A program made the position numbers and the translations under genes. From the NCBI GenBank assembly GCA_001687465.1, contig LVLI01000908.1, positions 1 through 20,724 of the forward strand: 20,724 bases of DNA. Reading direction: 5' to 3'. The DNA is from Halocafeteria seosinensis. Lineage: Eukaryota > Sar > Bigyra > Bicosoecida. The first letter of the stretch is position 1; the number at the start of each line of letters is the position of its first letter. The notes beneath the pieces were generated by a model, which saw nothing but the letters and a program-made list of their open reading frames with translations, was not told the origin of the DNA and did no database searches. Below are positions 4,429-20,724 of the stretch, in pieces.

Positions 4429-5934
4429 ATGGGTAAGCTAGGTCTCTTATTACTTCTCCTTTGCCATTTCTCCAAAGAAGCAGCTGCAATTGATTTGCGA
4501 AGCGCGATCGTGAATGGAGCTGAATCATGTTTCCATTATACTTTGAGCCAGGACCTGTTCGAGATGAATTGTAGTGTGCTAAAATGGAGTAATCATGGCT
4601 ACGGAAACAACGATTATATTTCATTGAATGCTAGTGAAATTTTTGATGGTGGCAATCTCAAAGGAAATATCATTGACTTAGATGGAATGAACAACTTTTA
4701 TGGATTGTTTCGGATCATGATAACTGTTGATACCTTTGAGCATGCCCCCGTGATTCGGAATCTTGATGTTAGGAATGGAACAACTGCATATAGTGGTGGA
4801 TTTATTGTCCGAACACAGCAGAAATTCTTCATCGTGGATTCATGTAGTTCATCAGGAATCATTGGTGGCCAGGGTGGTGGTATATGTGGTTATCAGAGTG
4901 GTTATAATCATGGTCAAATCAAAGTATCAAATTCCTATTCGACAGGGAGCATAAAAGGGATTTATGCAGGTGGTATTACGGGAAGCAGTGTAGGATATAA
5001 TAACGGAATCACCAATATCACGGGGTGCTATTCCACGGGAATAATTGAAGGACAACATGCAGGTGGTATTTGCGGCAATACTGCTTGTCGTAAAAATGGC
5101 CAAGTATTCATTTCTCGCTGCTATTCCACAGGAGATATTCTTGGGTCAGGTGGTGGAGGGATTGTGGGTGATGATGCTGGCTGGACAGATGGCCAAGTCT
5201 ACATTACTCTCTCCTACGCCACTGGCGATATTCTTGGACCAAGTAGTGGTGGAATTACTGGCGAGTATGCTGGCAACACAAATGGTCAAGTGTATATTAC
5301 TCATTCATACTCCACCGGAGATATAATTGGTCTTCAAAGTGGAGGCATTGTGGGTGCTAACGCTGCTTGGGACAACGGACTGGTCAGTATCAAGGAGTGC
5401 TATAGTAAGGGGCAAATATCAGGGGACTACAGTGGTGGTATCAGTGGTAGCGGCACAGGAGGAGACCTCGGTCAAGCAAATATTATAGACTGCTACACCC
5501 GAGGTAATATTACTGGCGAACAAGCAGGAGGTATTTCAGGAGACTACACAGGTGGTCAATCAGACGCGGGAGACTATTATGTGGAACTCTTTGGAGCCAC
5601 AGGTGCTGTGTACATCGTGAATTCATATGCTGCAGGCGCAGTCACGGGAAAGGATGCTGGTGGGATTATAGGACAAATAGAAAGTGATGCCAATGGTACT
5701 ATTCAAGTGAGATATTCCGTTTTCAACAACGGTACTGGAGGAGCCTTGGTAGGTTCGGACTCTAGCAACAAACTATCAGAAACGGGGAATTCAAACGATT
5801 TGTCCGTAATACGTGGGACTCTTTATCACTTTGAGGGATATCAACGATGGTCTGATGACGTCTGGACGGTAGATAGAAGTTTAACCGATCATCATGATGA
5901 GAATCTGCCCATTTTTTGGTTTCAACTGCCATAA
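4429..5934 (+). CDS. Secreted/surface GLUG-repeat protein (N-terminal half of a split receptor-like gene)
   Basis: From ATG 4429 (A at -3, G at +4) the frame encodes 501 residues. It starts with a clear signal peptide: MGK, a run of leucines, then SKEAAA before IDLRS. ATG 4393 in the same frame is an alternative. A short N-terminal domain follows (residues about 25-135, several N-x-S/T sites). Then come nine repeats of about 31 residues with the pattern YSTGxIxG..xGGIxG....xxNGQVxIxxC. These resemble GLUG repeats, a known family of short Gly-rich motifs found in surface proteins and expected to stack as a beta-solenoid. The end (VWTVDRSL...LPIFWFQLP) matches the Trp-rich closing segment usual after such repeats. 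The TAA at 5932-5934 is in the same frame as the long downstream frame, so this protein may be half of a larger one. The start is uncertain because the frame is open back to 3787. Confidence 0.75.
   Translation: MGKLGLLLLLLCHFSKEAAAIDLRSAIVNGAESCFHYTLSQDLFEMNCSVLKWSNHGYGNNDYISLNASEIFDGGNLKGNIIDLDGMNNFYGLFRIMITVDTFEHAPVIRNLDVRNGTTAYSGGFIVRTQQKFFIVDSCSSSGIIGGQGGGICGYQSGYNHGQIKVSNSYSTGSIKGIYAGGITGSSVGYNNGITNITGCYSTGIIEGQHAGGICGNTACRKNGQVFISRCYSTGDILGSGGGGIVGDDAGWTDGQVYITLSYATGDILGPSSGGITGEYAGNTNGQVYITHSYSTGDIIGLQSGGIVGANAAWDNGLVSIKECYSKGQISGDYSGGISGSGTGGDLGQANIIDCYTRGNITGEQAGGISGDYTGGQSDAGDYYVELFGATGAVYIVNSYAAGAVTGKDAGGIIGQIESDANGTIQVRYSVFNNGTGGALVGSDSSNKLSETGNSNDLSVIRGTLYHFEGYQRWSDDVWTVDRSLTDHHDENLPIFWFQLP
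4846..5745 (+). repeat. Nine GLUG-like 31-residue (93-bp) protein repeats
   Basis: Units start at successive YSTG/YATG/YSKG/YTRG/YAAG motifs. Five middle units are exactly 31 residues, the first is one residue shorter, and the eighth has an insertion with GDYYVELFGATGA. Nucleotide identity between units is moderate, so the array is old. Conserved positions are Tyr-Ser-Thr-Gly, the GGI-G turn, and a Cys or Ser before the next Tyr. Alternating Cys at unit ends could form a ladder of buried cysteines or disulfides. Confidence 0.8.
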
Positions 5935-5955
5935 CCCTCTGTTGCTCCTACACCG

Positions 5956-8900
5956 ATGTCCACGCCATCGTTTGCACCTACAAGCTCGGAAACTTCTACG
6001 AGCAGTTCTACTCCTTCCAACACTGCGACAGTGTCGCCGTCGCAAAGCCAAACGGTGACTAACAGCCCTACCGAGACAAGCAGTTCTACTCCTTCCAACA
6101 CTGAGACAGTGTCGCCTTCACAAAGCCAAACGGCGACTAAAAGCCCTACCGAGACAAGCAGTTCTACTCCTTCCAATACTGCGACAGTGTCGCCTTCGCA
6201 AAGCCAAACGGTGACTAAAAGCCCTACCGAGACTGTGACCCCAACTATAACTAGCAGCTCGACAAGTAGTCCAACGGTTACACACTCGCGAACTAAAACA
6301 GTTACAGCGTTAGAAACTCGAACAAGCACCCTCACTGCTTCCTGCACTCCTTCGCGAAGCCAAACTATTACCCGTGGCGCCACACACACGGTAACTCCAA
6401 CAACTACTGTAACTTCGACGAGCACTCCAACGTTCACAAGGACAAGGAAGCAAACAGCGTCAATATCAGCAACCCCTACAAGCACGTTTACTCCTTCGTT
6501 CACTTCTACCCTATCTCCTTCGCAGACTCAAACGGTGACACAGACAGCAACCGCGTGCTCGACGACGACAACTACTCCTACTACAAGTGTTACCTCGTCC
6601 TCCACCACTTCGCCCTCATCGTTGGGTTCGACGACAAATTTAGGCACAACATCCCCTTCACCGACACACACAGCTAGTGATACATCGAAAGCATCCGAAT
6701 CAAGTAGTCAGTCGACTTCCATAACGAGCACTGTTTTGCAATCTGTATCACCAAATTTCCCGTCAAACCCGCCACCCTCATCCAGTTCGATTCCCTCCCT
6801 AGCACCCGTTTCGAGTGGGAACCCACTGCTTGTTCGACCCCGGGAGCTCCGCTTATCCCAAACTCGGGGACTAGCTAACGGTGAGAATGTTCTCACCCAA
6901 TACGTATTCCTTACAGCCGGGGCGGGTCATGAGGTACAATGGAGACTTTCCACCGCTGCCGCTTCCGCGTTTGTCAAACTTCCTCGTACAGAAACTATTG
7001 AACACGAAGGGGGTGTTGTCGACTTACAACGGAATATATCAGTTTTAATAGATAGCGCACCCGCTGGAACGTCGCGCTTTTCTATTTTCGTCATATTTTC
7101 CAAGCTGTTTGCGAGTCGTAGTGAGATGGAAACTGTGGCAACATTTCCAATCGGTGTCAATTTAACAATTACAGAAGCGAATCCTGCTATCGACGACAAT
7201 ACTCTGGATGTGTCGCGAAGCAGCAGCGAAAGCGAAGTAACTGTGCCGCTATTCATATTGAACTTCGGCGACCACGGTTTCCAGTTCAATGTTTCCCTTT
7301 TCACAGATGCAGGAGTTAAGATTGAAGAAGGTAGCGAATACTGGGTCACTCATCCCTTGATAGATTTCGTCGAGTCTCAAGAGACTATTGAGCTACCATT
7401 GACGTTTTTTCCGCAGAGAGTATCAGGGCTTGGAGTCTTCCGTGGTTGGATGCTTGTAGCCACGAATGCGTGGCACAGCGAGTCGGCTTATGTTGGGCTC
7501 CCATCTGCTGCTGATTTCCCTCCTTCGCTCAACCTAGAAACAAAGGGCGTTCGGGCATATTTTTGGATACGTATTCGGTTCACAGTAACCTCGATCTTCG
7601 TCTGCAGGAGTTTCCGCACAAACATCATGCTTGCACCCTACGAGACAGTGAAATTCCATTTGGAAGTGTTGAACACCGAGGCGAGACCAATAACTGTAAA
7701 ACTTCGCGATTTCTCAGTCACGACCAGCATCAAATCCCATATTGCTCATGGCGGGGCCCGCGAGCATGCTATATTTCCACTCCATTACGAGGTAGATCCT
7801 GCGCGGGCAATTTTACTGGCACCCTGGTTGACCGTGAAACCCGCTCTACTACATTTGCAACGTGGTGTGTCCAAGGTTATTGACGTGCAGCTTAGTTACC
7901 CTAAGCGGCTCCTGGAGATACAGAGAGAAGGCAAAGAAGAAGAGATATACTTATCTCCGGGAGATTTTGCGCTAAGCTTCGCACTGAATGTATACTTGAA
8001 GGGATTGACAGCAGCCCTGCCTACTGGCATTTTCGAGGAAACATTTAGCTTTAGCAATATTCCCGGGATCGCTTCTCCTTACTATTCGTCCCTATCGCTG
8101 GACGACAATAGTCTCATTAGTGGAGGAACCACCACCTGCTTCGTCAAATTTCTTGACAGTTTCGGATATGGTCCGGCGACCATGATCGTGCCTACGTCAA
8201 GCGAAATTCTAAACGCCGCTGGAGACTACTACGACAACCGCAAGTTGCATATCATCTTGATGGGCGTTTCGCCGGGAGTAATATCTTGGGTGTCTTTCCA
8301 AAGCAGTACTGTACCCGGAGATACGGTGTCGTCGCTCAAGTTCCAGGTTTCAGCAACCGGGGCCGGTCTAGTACAGTTAGATGTCCGTATTGGGAACACC
8401 TCTGTGGTGGCTTCTCCAGCAGAGATTAACGTACGCCTGATCACTTGTAATGGAACACATGAGGAACCTCACATATCCGGGTCGTTCTGTGTGTGCCAAG
8501 AAGGGTTTCATCGCACCGAAACCCAACAATGTTCACCATGCTCCCCGGGTACATTTAAGGCGGATGCCTCGAATGGGAAGATTTGCGAAGACTGCCGTCC
8601 AAACCATTTTTCAGAATGGGCCAGTTCGTCGTGTTACCCGTGTGTAGAAAGGGGGGTTTTGTGTGCGGCCGGTGCCCTCAAGCTCCAAGGTGGCATTTGG
8701 TGTGAGGAATGTGCATTGGGAACTGCGCGGCAGTACATTGTACACAAGCTGCAGCATCATGAAGAAGTAGTATTTCATAAGTGCATACCTTCTTCTTCGT
8801 GTATTGTGGATAGCCACAACTTCAGTACAACGTGCGCTGATGGATACCAAGGACCTGTCTGTAATGAGTGCGCCAGCGGCTTTACCAAAGTACAGGATGG

Positions 8901-10488
8901 TTCTTGCGAGGCGTGTGGGAAAATGGCAAAAAATCTGGCAATATTTGGAGTGTCCGTAGTAATCTTGATCTCCGTTGTAATTGCGCTTGCGCATAGATCT
9001 CACAAGGATTCAGTAAGTACAATGGAAGAGGATAGTGACTCAGACAGCGATTTCGAACACCGTAATTTAAAATCCACTTTGAATGCGTCCCAGGCGATGA
9101 GTCATTCCGAAAACGTCTCATCACATTCTGCGGTACTGAAGGCTATCCATTTCCTGGTTTTACTGGTGTTGGACTACTTACAAGTCAATGCAATTATTCA
9201 TTCAATGAAGATTTCGCCGTTTAGGGGCACAGCCTCCTGGTTCAATAGCCTTTCGGCTGCAGCAACAATGAATCCTGCAACAGCGGGGGCACTTCCGTGT
9301 CTCACCGGCTCTGTACCAGTCTATACTACGTTGACGATCATGGCATCACCGATAGCAATTGCTGTATTCGCGGTTTGTGCTCAAGCATTGGTTACGAATT
9401 GGGAAAAGGATAAGCGAGAACGATTTCCAGTAAGATTTTGGCTCAAGAATACGGTGGTGTCGGCAATAAGTCTTCTAAATCTGGTGCATATGTCTGTTAC
9501 TCAAGCGACCTTGCGGAGTTTCGAAAAATATGAATTTGAAATTGACAATTCAGCCAGAGCGAAGATGGATCTTGGTTTGCGCACAGATAGCGAAAAATAT
9601 CGGCTACTGTACAGCTCAGCGATAGTGTCTCTCGTTGTATTTATCTTAGGATATCCTGTGTCTTTGACAGTGTACTACATCAGCAGATTTCGTCGCATGA
9701 GGACTCCCGCAGATGCCGCACTTCTGCGTCGCCTAACGGGAGGATATACGTTACAGAGATATGGTTTCCTTTGGGAAAATATTGTTATTTCTCGAAAAAC
9801 CCTCCTACTATGCGTTGCTGTGTTTGTATCCGAACCACTGGAGCAACTTGCGTTTTCAACAACCATACTTTTAGGATCCTTGGCAGTTGTTTACCAAATG
9901 GATCCTTACCCGTTTCGTGTTGTAACACTACTCGAAGGACTCGTGGTATTGCTTTCTGTCCTAAACTGCTCCATGGGTGCACTTATATACACCTTGTCAA
10001 AAGAATCGTATGGATTCCATGAAGGAACTATCTTGTCGCTAACTAACACAGAGCGGAGTGTCGTAGCATTTCAGGTCGGTTTTATGTTTGTCGCCCTGAT
10101 TGTGTTACTGTACTTGTCCCCTGGTGCAGTCCGGCGCCTAAACCATATATTTTCAGAAAGAGTACTGCAGAAATGTTCTGAGTGTCTAGTGAGACGACGA
10201 GAACGACTGAGTTTGAAAACTTCATGCGTACATGTCGTGCATCGCAGTACATCGAAAGCCCATCAGTCAGTTGAAGTGCGGGCCACAGATCCAATTGAGG
10301 GTAGTCATGTTGTTACTTACAGTCAAAACCCCGCATTCCTTCCATTATTCATTCAGGCTGGAGCAGTTGAATCTGAGACGGTATCATTGAATGGGGAAGG
10401 GAGAACCTCCCCGAAAAGGCTTCGTTACCTGCGGAGAAGGACAAGTCACCGCAGAGTTAGAGGACCTCTACGGATTCAGAAGTCCTAG
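5956..10488 (+). CDS. Ser/Thr-rich stalk, Cys-rich module and multi-pass membrane protein (C-terminal half of the split receptor-like gene)
   Basis: The frame from ATG 5956 encodes 1,510 residues, and the frame is already open from 5935, directly after the TAA. Residues 1-290 are a mucin-like Ser/Thr/Pro stalk. About 290-830 form a large beta-rich-looking ectodomain. About 831-985 hold some 19 cysteines in a TNFR/GCC2-GCC3-like pattern (CSPCSPGTF, ICEDC, SSCYPC, PVCNEC). Membrane segments follow near 993-1013, then 1059, 1120, 1161, 1217, 1278, 1322 and 1369. A Ser/Asp cluster (SDSDSDFEH) lies after the first. A basic cytoplasmic tail of roughly 115 residues ends the protein. This Cys-rich plus multi-pass layout is known from large uncharacterised surface proteins of algae and stramenopiles. 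The product has no signal peptide of its own, which argues that it depends on the upstream GLUG half. A receptor or adhesion role is inference. Confidence 0.75.
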   Translation: MSTPSFAPTSSETSTSSSTPSNTATVSPSQSQTVTNSPTETSSSTPSNTETVSPSQSQTATKSPTETSSSTPSNTATVSPSQSQTVTKSPTETVTPTITSSSTSSPTVTHSRTKTVTALETRTSTLTASCTPSRSQTITRGATHTVTPTTTVTSTSTPTFTRTRKQTASISATPTSTFTPSFTSTLSPSQTQTVTQTATACSTTTTTPTTSVTSSSTTSPSSLGSTTNLGTTSPSPTHTASDTSKASESSSQSTSITSTVLQSVSPNFPSNPPPSSSSIPSLAPVSSGNPLLVRPRELRLSQTRGLANGENVLTQYVFLTAGAGHEVQWRLSTAAASAFVKLPRTETIEHEGGVVDLQRNISVLIDSAPAGTSRFSIFVIFSKLFASRSEMETVATFPIGVNLTITEANPAIDDNTLDVSRSSSESEVTVPLFILNFGDHGFQFNVSLFTDAGVKIEEGSEYWVTHPLIDFVESQETIELPLTFFPQRVSGLGVFRGWMLVATNAWHSESAYVGLPSAADFPPSLNLETKGVRAYFWIRIRFTVTSIFVCRSFRTNIMLAPYETVKFHLEVLNTEARPITVKLRDFSVTTSIKSHIAHGGAREHAIFPLHYEVDPARAILLAPWLTVKPALLHLQRGVSKVIDVQLSYPKRLLEIQREGKEEEIYLSPGDFALSFALNVYLKGLTAALPTGIFEETFSFSNIPGIASPYYSSLSLDDNSLISGGTTTCFVKFLDSFGYGPATMIVPTSSEILNAAGDYYDNRKLHIILMGVSPGVISWVSFQSSTVPGDTVSSLKFQVSATGAGLVQLDVRIGNTSVVASPAEINVRLITCNGTHEEPHISGSFCVCQEGFHRTETQQCSPCSPGTFKADASNGKICEDCRPNHFSEWASSSCYPCVERGVLCAAGALKLQGGIWCEECALGTARQYIVHKLQHHEEVVFHKCIPSSSCIVDSHNFSTTCADGYQGPVCNECASGFTKVQDGSCEACGKMAKNLAIFGVSVVILISVVIALAHRSHKDSVSTMEEDSDSDSDFEHRNLKSTLNASQAMSHSENVSSHSAVLKAIHFLVLLVLDYLQVNAIIHSMKISPFRGTASWFNSLSAAATMNPATAGALPCLTGSVPVYTTLTIMASPIAIAVFAVCAQALVTNWEKDKRERFPVRFWLKNTVVSAISLLNLVHMSVTQATLRSFEKYEFEIDNSARAKMDLGLRTDSEKYRLLYSSAIVSLVVFILGYPVSLTVYYISRFRRMRTPADAALLRRLTGGYTLQRYGFLWENIVISRKTLLLCVAVFVSEPLEQLAFSTTILLGSLAVVYQMDPYPFRVVTLLEGLVVLLSVLNCSMGALIYTLSKESYGFHEGTILSLTNTERSVVAFQVGFMFVALIVLLYLSPGAVRRLNHIFSERVLQKCSECLVRRRERLSLKTSCVHVVHRSTSKAHQSVEVRATDPIEGSHVVTYSQNPAFLPLFIQAGAVESETVSLNGEGRTSPKRLRYLRRRTSHRRVRGPLRIQKS
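5998..6231 (+). repeat. Three tandem 78-bp repeats in the mucin-like stalk
   Basis: Units 5998-6075, 6076-6153 and 6154-6231 are nearly identical. Each encodes 26 residues of the form TSSSTPSNTATVSPSQSQTV plus TxSPTE. The differences are a handful of substitutions (for example Ala/Glu, Val/Ala, Asn/Lys). The high identity contrasts with the old GLUG array and suggests recent expansion or copy-number change. Confidence 0.9.
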
Positions 10489-14221: not shown

Positions 14222-16276
14222 ATGATGATGATGATGTGTATTTATCCTACGTGTCCCAATTACAAGCCTCTATTACCTTCTGTACAATTGTATAATGCCT
14301 ATGTATACAGCCGCCTAAGAAAGGACCTAAACGCAGTGGAGCGGCCGCTTCATCATCTGAACAGAGTACAAACGAAGACATCACACCGACGACTCGGGAT
14401 CCCCCCAGAGAAAGAGATGGAGCCGCTTCATCATCTGATGCCGATCAAGACGACTCAGGATCCCCCAAACCATGGGCCTCAGAAGTTTTTCCCTATTAGT
14501 ACAGCGGTTGAGCCCGACCTGCACTACCATTTGATTCCCACATTATGGTCGGATCGTCTTCAGAGAGTCGTTCCTGCGTCAGATGCCATTAGCCAAATCG
14601 TCGCGAGACGGGGAGAGTGGTTCAGAATCTACGGACCCCGACAGTCCGGCAAGACTACCGCTTTGACGTGGGCAGCGAAAGCCTTACACCAGACCAAAAA
14701 ATATGTTTGCGTATACTGGAACTTACAGTCGATCAAACCTCCCGAAGTTGGTCCCGAAAACCGTGAGGTAAAGATCGGCTTTGATTTGGACCTACTGACT
14801 GAGTTAATGTATGGTGTCAGGGCAGCCCAAGCGAACGGCCACCTTCGTGAAGGATTTGACTCCGAAGCCGTGTATAACGAGCTTTTGGCTGCGAATAGTA
14901 GGGCTGGCACGCGCGTCAGGGACTATCTAACACGTCTGGCGCAATTCGTGGAAGGTCAGAAGAAACAGACGCTCGTCATCTTTGTTGATGAAGTTGACTC
15001 CCTTGCAACTGACAAGGAGAATGCTCCTTGGATGAACTACTTCCTTGAAACCCTCCGGATGCTGCATAATAATATTGCGAGCAGTACGCCCGCACCGAGC
15101 TCCATAGGGCTATGTGCGTTGTATGACATTTCGCAAGTGGTTCCTCGATCTTCACCGTTCAATAACGTCAATAGATGGTTACATCCCGTTTTCTGGAACA
15201 AAAGCGATTTACAGAAAATGTTGCAGCAATATGCTGACGATTCCGGACGAATAATTGAGAACGACGTTGTGGAAGCAATCATGTATGAAGTAGCAGGTTA
15301 TCCATGGTTTTGCAACTACATTATGTCATTAGTGGCCGATATTCCTGATGCGAACCCTGTTAAAGCGTGGCATGTGAAGTTGGTGGTGCAGCAATTGTAC
15401 CGACGTCGAGTTTCCGGAATTTCTTCTTTGGAGACCCGGCTCAAACATGACTTGCGTCTTCGCAATCTAGTGATGAAAATGAGTCTGGGGCTGGTACCCA
15501 CAAGAGATGAGGAGAAGGTAGGGTTGGAACTTGGCGTGATTCGGGAAGTTGAAGAAGCGCAATACGACTTCTCTGGCAACATGATTCGTGAGTGTTGTTT
15601 TCGGTGGTTGGCGGATGATTTAGAGACGACTGACTTTGAACTCAACGAAGCCCGTAAATCTTGCATCAAGCACGATAATGTTGACTGGGAAAAAATGATG
15701 GAACGGTTTCTTGTGCTGCACATGCACCCTTGCGTCGCCCTAGTTCTTCGGCATTTGGTCGCTAACAAGCGGAGAACTTCACCTCAGCAGAACATTTTCA
15801 ATTGGTTGGAGCGTGGGCGAAAGGACGTCGTTAGAGAAGAATTTTTCACAGATCTTGCAAGATGTGGGTATGCAAGGCTTCTAAATGGGGATAGCCGCGG
15901 CATGGTGATTACTGAACAGCCTGCAGAGGACGGCAAAAAGCCTGATTGCCTTTTGCATCGTACTTTGAATAATAGCATCCGCGTTCGCGCAATTGTAGAG
16001 CATAAACTTGCCAGGCCGCTCGAGGTGAACCAACCCGTCGATATCGAAGAAATTAATAAGAAAATGGAGGAGGCTGTAAAGGACCTAGCAGCGTACTATC
16101 GAACATATCGCGTGGATACTCACGCGCTCCTGGCAGTGGTGTATGCACCGAGCGCCGCGACTCCGAATCCGCAGTTCAAACAGTTCAGTTGTAGTATCAT
16201 TAAAGATGAAAAACGCTTCGGTGATGTACCGGTGTACAAAATCGTGTTTCGAATCGATTTGGGACCCAGCGGCTAA
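14222..16276 (+). CDS. P-loop ATPase fused to a PD-(D/E)XK nuclease
   Basis: The single-exon frame encodes 684 residues from the first of five Met codons. The ATPase core has Walker A GPRQSGKTT (138-146) and Walker B LVIFVDEVD (251-259). SPFNNVN and the AGYPWF segment follow, as in AAA_35/STAND-like ATPases where a helical or winged-helix lid comes next. Near the C-terminus, Pro574-Asp575 and Glu593-His-Lys595 after a beta strand (RVRAIVE) form the PD-(D/E)XK nuclease signature. NTPase plus restriction-fold nuclease is the core of Crinkler/CR-type eukaryotic proteins and of related transposon-derived families. The function here is unknown: a DNA-directed or host-conflict role is inference. 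The first ~85 residues look out of frame. The +1-shifted frame across 14311-14490 gives a better Ser/acidic linker and joins the ATPase frame if the T5 run at 14486-14490 were one base shorter. The true start is therefore uncertain. Confidence 0.75.
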   Translation: MMMMMCIYPTCPNYKPLLPSVQLYNAYVYSRLRKDLNAVERPLHHLNRVQTKTSHRRLGIPPEKEMEPLHHLMPIKTTQDPPNHGPQKFFPISTAVEPDLHYHLIPTLWSDRLQRVVPASDAISQIVARRGEWFRIYGPRQSGKTTALTWAAKALHQTKKYVCVYWNLQSIKPPEVGPENREVKIGFDLDLLTELMYGVRAAQANGHLREGFDSEAVYNELLAANSRAGTRVRDYLTRLAQFVEGQKKQTLVIFVDEVDSLATDKENAPWMNYFLETLRMLHNNIASSTPAPSSIGLCALYDISQVVPRSSPFNNVNRWLHPVFWNKSDLQKMLQQYADDSGRIIENDVVEAIMYEVAGYPWFCNYIMSLVADIPDANPVKAWHVKLVVQQLYRRRVSGISSLETRLKHDLRLRNLVMKMSLGLVPTRDEEKVGLELGVIREVEEAQYDFSGNMIRECCFRWLADDLETTDFELNEARKSCIKHDNVDWEKMMERFLVLHMHPCVALVLRHLVANKRRTSPQQNIFNWLERGRKDVVREEFFTDLARCGYARLLNGDSRGMVITEQPAEDGKKPDCLLHRTLNNSIRVRAIVEHKLARPLEVNQPVDIEEINKKMEEAVKDLAAYYRTYRVDTHALLAVVYAPSAATPNPQFKQFSCSIIKDEKRFGDVPVYKIVFRIDLGPSG
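14344..14466 (+). repeat. Two imperfect direct repeats in the 5' part of the ATPase-nuclease gene
   Basis: GCCGCTTCATCATCTGA occurs exactly at 14344-14360 and 14422-14438. A second shared block, GACGACTC(G/A)GGATCCCC, occurs at 14388 and 14449. In the shifted frame both encode AASSS...acidic...DPP/GSP linker sequence, which fits slippage within a low-complexity coding linker. Confidence 0.75.
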
Positions 16277-19986: not shown

Positions 19987-20724
19987 CTAGGCCTTGTTTC
20001 TCTTGACATAGAACAGAATGTAAGCATTGCTCCCGGAAATTTGCTCGGGAGAAATTGGGGAAACCTTGGTATCATTAAAGTTGTACCATTCGCCCGTATC
20101 CATATTCCGTGCGTCCCTGTGAGCATATACAAAACTTCTAGCCGACGAATACTCGACAGTAACAAAGCCTGAGCACGTACGCGGTATAATGACCTCCATT
20201 GAGGGTCCCCATGTGGTTCGAAACGGCCACGAGGTCATAGACAGGAGGGACATTCCATTCATGAGCTGGTTCCGATTGCCAAAGAAGCGCAAATGTTACT
20301 ATTATACATTACAAATGCAATTCGCGAAGACTTACAATTCTTTGAAATATACGGTGAAATGTCAAGCTGCAGAGTTGGGAAATCAATACTGGCGGTGATC
20401 TTACTACGGCGAAACGTGGAGAAGGTGAACCGCTTCAAATGAAACACCAAAATTTCAGGGCTCTTGAATATTGTTAAATACTTTTCACAAGAAGTTTCCC
20501 GTTTACACCTCTTGCAAATATATCCTTCAGCGCTGATTCTTTCTGGCCCAATATACGATTTTAAGCAGTTGTGGATCGAAATATTGCGATTTGAGCCAAA
20601 CCTTCCAGAAGACCGTCGACCCGCAGCCTGCACCGATTGTGGAATCTGAAGCGACAAATCCAGAAAGGGATCGAAACACCGCGAAACTGCGCCACAAGAC
20701 AGGCACTTCACTTCACTCTTCAAC
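19987..20724 (-). CDS. Ubiquitin-specific protease (USP/UBP family), C-terminal part
   Basis: Read on the minus strand, exons are 20724-20336 (open at the edge), 20265-20181 and 20116-19987. Introns are 70 nt (GTAAGT donor, phase 1) and 64 nt (GTACGT donor, phase 2). LKSEVKCLSCGAVSRCFDPF is the USP finger entry. CLSC and CKRC form the zinc-ribbon cysteine pairs, and ILVFHLKRF is the family core strand. YDLVAVSNHMG then GGHYTA carries the catalytic His, and GEWYNFND carries the Asn/Asp that orients it. SNAYILFYVKRNKA closes the fold. It would cleave ubiquitin from proteins. The Cys box lies beyond the right edge. The spacing HYTADARNMDTGEWY matches family spacing, supporting the 64-nt intron. 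An in-phase 43-nt alternative (acceptor GGCTAG) would add seven residues. The usual Tyr of GHYTAY is Asp at the exon junction. Confidence 0.92.

What the first reader, a model, noticed from the sequence alone, without database searches (positions are those of the whole stretch)
5932..5934. A single in-frame TAA splits what looks like one ~2,000-residue receptor
The GLUG-repeat frame (open from 3787) and the 1,510-codon frame from 5956 are in the same frame, separated only by TAA at 5932-5934. The codons right after the stop already read as the Pro/Ser/Thr stalk (PSVAPTPMSTPSFAP). The upstream half has a signal peptide and no membrane anchor. The downstream half has a stalk, Cys-rich module and membrane domain but no signal peptide. 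Together they make a complete architecture. Either this allele is newly broken, the stop is read through, or it is spliced out. The 1,517 intact codons downstream mean any loss must be very recent.
Basis: partly seen in the sequence, partly recalled or inferred. Interest (0 to 1): 0.88.

Follow-up and report, generated by a model that had tools for sequence, protein, structure and literature searches.

The report
Receptor gene interrupted by one stop
In a single-celled eukaryote with a large family of cell-surface receptor genes, this copy carries one stop codon exactly where the outer domain meets its stalk, while most sister copies read straight through, so it most likely is a recently broken copy rather than a new mechanism.

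Summary
In detail: TAA 5932-5934 separates two long frames of one reading phase. The window lies in an unnamed 30.6 Mb eukaryotic genome (G000) with dozens of relatives of the upstream GLUG-like half and 36 loci, window included, of the downstream membrane half. Of 17 loci recognised as having both halves, 14 carry them in one stop-free frame. One is 100% identical to a 2,166-residue transcript ORF, P0001, without an intron. Homology runs on across the TAA, so no intron of this genome's kind fits. TAA ends intact relatives, so it is not recoded. The three broken loci show one break each: the window (TAA), its 67% sister C520 (frameshift about 33 codons further on) and C201 (frameshift). Two GLUG copies without the membrane half carry one TAA. 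Another, C587, has two frame breaks, and its transcript-derived protein ends at the first genomic stop, so a broken copy can be transcribed. Best explanation: a recent nonsense mutation in one member of a birth-and-death receptor family, leaving at most a secreted ectodomain. Assembly error, a useful soluble form and readthrough remain rivals.

The parts
4429..5931 (+). Upstream half: signal-peptide-like start, then GLUG-like repeat ectodomain ending in LPIFWFQLP
   Evidence: homologous to dozens of own-genome copies and to transcript-derived proteins
5932..5934 (+). In-frame TAA at the ectodomain/stalk boundary
   Evidence: sense codons at the aligned place in C492 (L013) and C520 (L033); codon absent in C81 (L024)
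5935..6850 (+). Pro/Ser/Thr stalk with a 78-base tandem repeat at 6001-6233; end approximate
6851..8427 (+). Region between stalk and Cys-rich module, conserved in the membrane family; start approximate
8428..8916 (+). Cys-rich module, ephrin-receptor/TNFR-like; 18 invariant Cys columns in alignment A1 of 15 sequences
8917..10209 (+). Multi-pass membrane domain, about 7 hydrophobic segments by a simple scan (about 8 in P0001)
10210..10488 (+). Basic C-terminal tail and TAG stop

Best explanation
The locus is one gene: signal peptide, GLUG-like repeat ectodomain, Pro/Ser/Thr stalk, Cys-rich module and multi-pass membrane domain. It belongs to a large birth-and-death family of putative surface receptors. 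This copy has recently acquired a nonsense codon at the ectodomain/stalk boundary. Shown: the in-frame stop, single-frame relatives, homology that continues across the stop, and TAA used as an ordinary terminator in the family. Inferred: translation ends at 5932, giving at most a secreted ectodomain without stalk or anchor. The membrane half, which has no signal peptide, is not made. The copy is a young pseudogene or a segregating null allele.
For: Fourteen of 17 loci recognised as having both halves carry them in one frame. Two C117 loci, C198 and C201:41220 are covered by overlapping stop-free match rows (C198 also read). The linking stretch of ten others was read and is stop-free. P0001, a transcript-derived ORF, is 100% identical to C117:110351-116848 with no intron. 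In 22 of 22 other distinct GLUG ends that fitted the pattern the frame runs on. DNA alignment with C492 (L013) crosses the TAA without a gap there, 119 columns at 70%. TAA ends 8 of 22 frames of 300 or more codons in the loci then held; three are the lesions under discussion, three follow the conserved C-terminal motif and one is the natural end of the C520 receptor. Broken copies recur: C520, C201, C371 and C81, C587. For C587 the transcript-derived protein ends at the genomic stop after the first break. No near-identical protein for either half appeared in searches that do reach that transcript set.
Against: The stop is not verified by reads or RNA. Both halves look constrained against C520 (third-position differences 0.46 and 0.37, second-position 0.22 and 0.17), but that covers the whole time since duplication. 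The two closest copies are both broken in or beside the early stalk, which uniform decay would rarely give.
Confidence: 0.72

Rival explanations
1. Assembly or base-calling error: the genome has a sense codon at 5932 and the gene is intact.
For: The call rests on one assembly. Three loci with one break each among 17 is a rate an imperfect draft could give, above all for the two frameshifts.
Against: Transcript-derived proteins agree with the assembly: P0001 100%, P0054 100% to residue 502, P0057 99% over residues 81-541, P0009 98% over 31-856, MAPK 100% over the 282 residues queried. The first C587 break is also in the transcript-derived protein. A substitution-type stop is a less usual error than an indel (general knowledge).
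Confidence: 0.13
2. The stop has been kept because a secreted ectodomain without anchor is useful; a receptor has become a soluble decoy or matrix protein.
For: The stop leaves the GLUG domain complete. Sister C520 also breaks soon after it, about 33 codons past the FQL motif. Many GLUG relatives lack the membrane half: 12 of 22 frames end in a shared C-terminal motif instead, and similar transcript-derived proteins exist.
Against: Those relatives have a stalk and the motif (IVLP[AV]QRP[KR]RTVKG or similar), and the window product would have neither. Two lesions are few. The downstream frame is still open.
Confidence: 0.09
3. Stop-codon readthrough makes both a secreted form and a full receptor.
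For: The 1,517 downstream codons are open and in phase. C371 and C81 also have one in-frame TAA each, as the window does.
Against: TAA ends intact family members. TAA followed by C is not a readthrough motif I know of (recalled). C520 and C201 break by frameshift, which readthrough cannot explain. The RNA folds after the stop (-11.9 kcal/mol over 81 bases) were not compared with shuffles, so they say nothing either way.
Confidence: 0.04
4. An intron removes the stop.
For: The genome has introns: three of 72-87 bases, GTAAGC or GTAGGA to TGCAG, in the MAPK gene of this window (read). A script found 74 phase-keeping GT...AG pairs of 45-400 bases across the stop; it did not test the joints for stops.
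Against: The top-scoring pair (5802-6083) has a GTCCGT donor and would delete the conserved end of the GLUG domain. The pair with the donor nearest the stop among the 20 printed (5919) starts GTTTCA, 2 of 6 consensus bases by the script's count, inside the conserved FQL motif. Homology continues across the site. The receptor matched in full by P0001 is intronless over that ORF.
Confidence: 0.02

Closest known systems
C117:110351-116848 / transcript ORF P0001 (GECG01009629), same genome
   Same: GLUG-like repeats, P/S/T stalk, Cys-rich module, multi-pass membrane domain; 35-37% identity in the downstream half
   Different: Two GLUG blocks, one uninterrupted 2,166-residue ORF
C520 paralog (L033)
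   Same: 67% identical membrane half, same order and junction
   Different: No TAA; the frame shifts by one base about 33 codons after the GLUG end
Pfam Glug (PF07581) proteins
   Same: 48% identity over 61% to P0027, which matches PF07581
   Different: Window itself not matched at E up to 1
Ephrin-receptor-like and TNFR-like Cys-rich domains; mastigoneme-like protein Mst1 (8tx1)
   Same: Profile of the Cys-rich plus membrane region matches 8tx1 at 4.8e-15, in the Cys-rich part
   Different: Window's own Pfam matches stay under the curated cut-offs; no significant PDB match to the membrane domain

Membership tests
GLUG-stalk-membrane receptor family of this genome | GLUG-like ectodomain followed in phase by P/S/T stalk, Cys-rich module and membrane domain | tested here: met
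   all parts present in order and phase
GLUG-stalk-membrane receptor family of this genome | One uninterrupted reading frame | tested here: not met
   TAA 5932; 14 of 17 loci intact, 3 broken
Pfam Glug PF07581 | Match above the curated cut-off (20.5 bits) | tested here: not met
   No hit for the window at E up to 1; 2 of 15 aligned proteins weak, best 0.052; homolog P0027 met at 51.8 bits
GLUG relatives without membrane half | Stalk plus C-terminal IVLP[AV]QRP[KR]RTVKG-like motif | tested here: not met
   The window product would end at FQLP; motif in 12 of 22 frames and in several proteins
Pseudogene | Disabling lesion in conserved coding sequence | tested here: met
Pseudogene | Loss of constraint after the lesion, or no product | not testable with these tools
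   Single copy; no population data or reads
Programmed readthrough gene | Protein or ribosomes beyond the stop | not testable with these tools
   No such data held

The most novel reading that the evidence does not exclude
In this receptor family, stops and frameshifts in or beside the early stalk are a recurrent switch from anchored receptor to released ectodomain. The window and its closest sister, both broken there, and the existence of a transcribed broken copy elsewhere in the family would be examples, either as contingency 'off/soluble' alleles in a variable surface repertoire or as decoys.
Probability: 0.12. Interest if true: 0.7.

Novelty: new member of a known kind. Interest (0 to 1): 0.34.

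Why it matters
It shows that an apparently split gene is a single receptor with one lesion. It also uncovers a large, thinly sampled receptor family in which intact, broken and broken-but-transcribed copies coexist; one relative of the membrane half was found in a search of 5.8 billion proteins, of which the 7,993 sharing most words were scored. If early-stalk breaks proved selected, the locus would make receptor-to-soluble conversion directly testable.

Tried and rejected
Intron across the stop: rejected. Recoding of TAA as sense: rejected, since intact family members end in TAA. Downstream half as an independent gene: rejected. Two membrane relatives in whose fetched upstream stretch I saw no GLUG repeats (C564, C340) have their own hydrophobic N-terminal stretch and another ectodomain (read by eye); the window's downstream half has neither. 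Short membrane frames at C179 and C340:10925 were dropped as contig-end truncations. The frame lengths can run through a stop (the window is given as 2,233), so equal lengths were not trusted alone; linking stretches were read. Organism: not identified. The MAPK stretch queried is 100% identical to an unnamed EukProt protein (TSA prefix GECG); the nearest named record is Symbiodinium sp. KB8 (68%), and the next named ones include stramenopiles at 52-54%. Paper searches for GECG01 and GECG00000000 found none. A paper search for GLUG gave 44 papers, 25 listed; by title and the start of the abstract none is on a eukaryotic GLUG receptor; I opened none. A looser search was uninformative. The rRNA search did not complete.

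Full report
OBSERVATION. TAA 5932-5934 is in phase with the open frame from 3787 and with ATG 5956. Downstream, 1,517 codons are open to TAG 10486. The most plausible start of the upstream protein is ATG 4429, where a signal-peptide-like stretch directly precedes the DLR...C motif that opens the ectodomain in many relatives. The 214 codons upstream of it in the same frame have no convincing match in the loci then held (best E 0.018), so they may be untranslated.

GENOME. The window is contig C466 of an unnamed 30.6 Mb, 605-contig genome. Its MAPK gene has three short GT-AG introns of 72-87 bases, read. The 282 MAPK residues queried are 100% identical to a EukProt protein with TSA prefix GECG. 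Four GECG proteins were searched against this genome and all four matched: P0001 100%, P0054 100% to residue 502, P0057 99% over residues 81-541, P0009 98% over 31-856. That transcript set is therefore the same or a nearly identical species (inference).

FAMILY. The upstream half gave 162 matches, including the window and often several per gene. The downstream half gave 39 rows at 36 loci, window included. Both are lower bounds by the tool's own note. I paired GLUG rows with membrane rows on the same contig, strand and frame. Seventeen loci have both halves. Fourteen have them in one stop-free frame: C117 twice, C198, C525, C580, C201:41220, C62, C241, C356, C515:77219, C383, C272, C106 and C246. 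Because the tool's frame length can run through a stop, I checked the link. Overlapping stop-free rows cover both C117 loci, C198 and C201:41220. The stretch between the halves was read and is open in the other ten (C525 and C580; eight more). C272 came only. Three loci are broken: the window, C520 and C201:35601. The locus C117:110351-116848 equals the transcript ORF P0001 (2,166 residues) along its whole length without an intron. So the usual gene is one long uninterrupted frame.

THE SITE. Among the loci then held, 22 distinct other GLUG ends fitted a strict pattern (a 23rd printed row is one of them again, cut by the end of a locus). In all 22 the frame continues at least 53 residues; for C520 most of these lie beyond its frameshift. 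GLUG ends that did not fit the pattern were not counted. DNA alignment with C492 (L013) covers 119 columns at 70%, with one three-base gap upstream, none at the junction, and a sense codon at the TAA. C81 aligns with that codon missing. C520 aligns without a gap over the same place. Codons on both sides are therefore conserved coding sequence, and no intron of the size seen in this genome fits between them without removing some of it. A script found 74 phase-keeping GT...AG pairs; the best has a poor donor and would remove the conserved GLUG end, and the one with the donor nearest the stop among the 20 printed has 2 of 6 consensus bases. TAA is a normal terminator here. Of 22 frames of 300 or more codons ending in the loci then held, 11 end in TGA, 8 in TAA and 3 in TAG; of the 8, three are the lesions discussed, three follow the conserved C-terminal motif, one is the natural end of the C520 receptor and one is of unknown meaning.

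OTHER BROKEN COPIES. In C520 the P/S/T-rich frame jumps by one base about 33 codons after the FQL motif, inside a stalk motif shared with other paralogs. In C201 two frames that match the window's residues 304-420 and 424-723 (counted from 5935) abut within about five bases. C371 and C81 have one in-frame TAA inside the GLUG domain. In C587 the GLUG repeats pass through three frames, so it has two breaks. The transcript-derived protein P0057, annotated as a complete ORF, ends at the same residue before the same genomic stop after the first break, at a G run. So broken copies are not just assembly artefacts, and at least one is transcribed.

AGE. If the downstream half is unconstrained since the stop, 3.3% of substitutions there would create a stop. 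Having none excludes more than about 2.0% neutral divergence at P = 0.05 from substitutions alone, or 0.7% with an assumed 0.1 indels per substitution (transition bias 2 assumed). This supports a recent lesion but gives no date.

EXPRESSION. Searches with either half found no near-identical protein. One search scored 7,993 candidates and found one relative at 35%. In one search (best 120 of 488 listed) the top GECG hit has 44% identity, and the highest identity of any is 59%, over 26% of the query. The window gene is thus not represented in that protein set. This is weak evidence of silence: one search showed only one membrane relative in all, and its word filter may miss others.

MECHANISM. 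Most likely the ribosome stops at 5932, and any product is a secreted GLUG-like ectodomain lacking the stalk and the basic C-terminal motif that many relatives carry. Restart at ATG 5956 would make a protein with about 990 residues before its first strong hydrophobic segment and no signal peptide, which is unlikely to be inserted correctly (inference). The Cys-rich module resembles ephrin-receptor-like, TNFR-like (ELAPOR1) and NCD3G domains, each matched at E up to 1 by 12 of 15 aligned members. The window itself matches the first two weakly, under the curated cut-offs, and NCD3G not at all. The best solved match of the profile is the mastigoneme-like protein Mst1. The membrane domain has no significant sequence relative in the PDB (one hit at E 0.53).

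AGAINST THIS READING. There are no reads or RNA for the site itself. The two closest copies are both broken within about 33 codons of each other in genes of about 2,000 codons; given one, chance puts the second that near roughly 3% of the time (my estimate, after the fact). Stalk repeats are also prone to slippage, which would explain C520 but not a TAA.

VERDICT. A real and correctly described feature, best read as a young nonsense mutation in a large receptor family. It is ordinary in kind; the family and its C-terminal motif are the more interesting part.

Noticed in passing
Loci L011, L014-L018, L020, L021, L023, L028, L029, L031, L035; proteins P0020, P0024, P0028, P0031, P0033 among others: GLUG relatives without the membrane half often end in a conserved basic C-terminal motif (IVLP[AV]QRP[KR]RTVKG or similar) after the P/S/T stalk, possibly a sorting or attachment signal.
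   Followed up: partly
L053 (C587:6740-8122) and P0057: A GLUG copy with two frame breaks is transcribed; the transcript-derived protein ends at the genomic stop after the first. An intron near residues 80/81 is implied by the change of frame there.
   Followed up: yes
L054 (C117:92638-94143) and P0054: The transcript-derived protein is 100% identical to residue 502, then diverges and ends after five more, while the genomic frame is 858 codons long; cause unknown.
   Followed up: partly
L002 / L024 (C81): This GLUG copy ends in a stalk followed by a single hydrophobic stretch and a short tail (by eye), so some relatives may be single-pass proteins.
   Followed up: no
window 14222-16276: ORF with an AAA/ATPase_2 domain (1.2e-08) and a C-terminal part that looks nuclease-like by eye (not tested).
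   Followed up: no
C525, C580, C515, C27, C563: Very long open frames (3,373-5,735 codons as reported) with several GLUG blocks; C525, C580 and C515 also carry the membrane half.
   Followed up: partly
window 20259-20723, minus strand: Part of a ubiquitin carboxyl-terminal hydrolase gene at the contig end.
   Followed up: no
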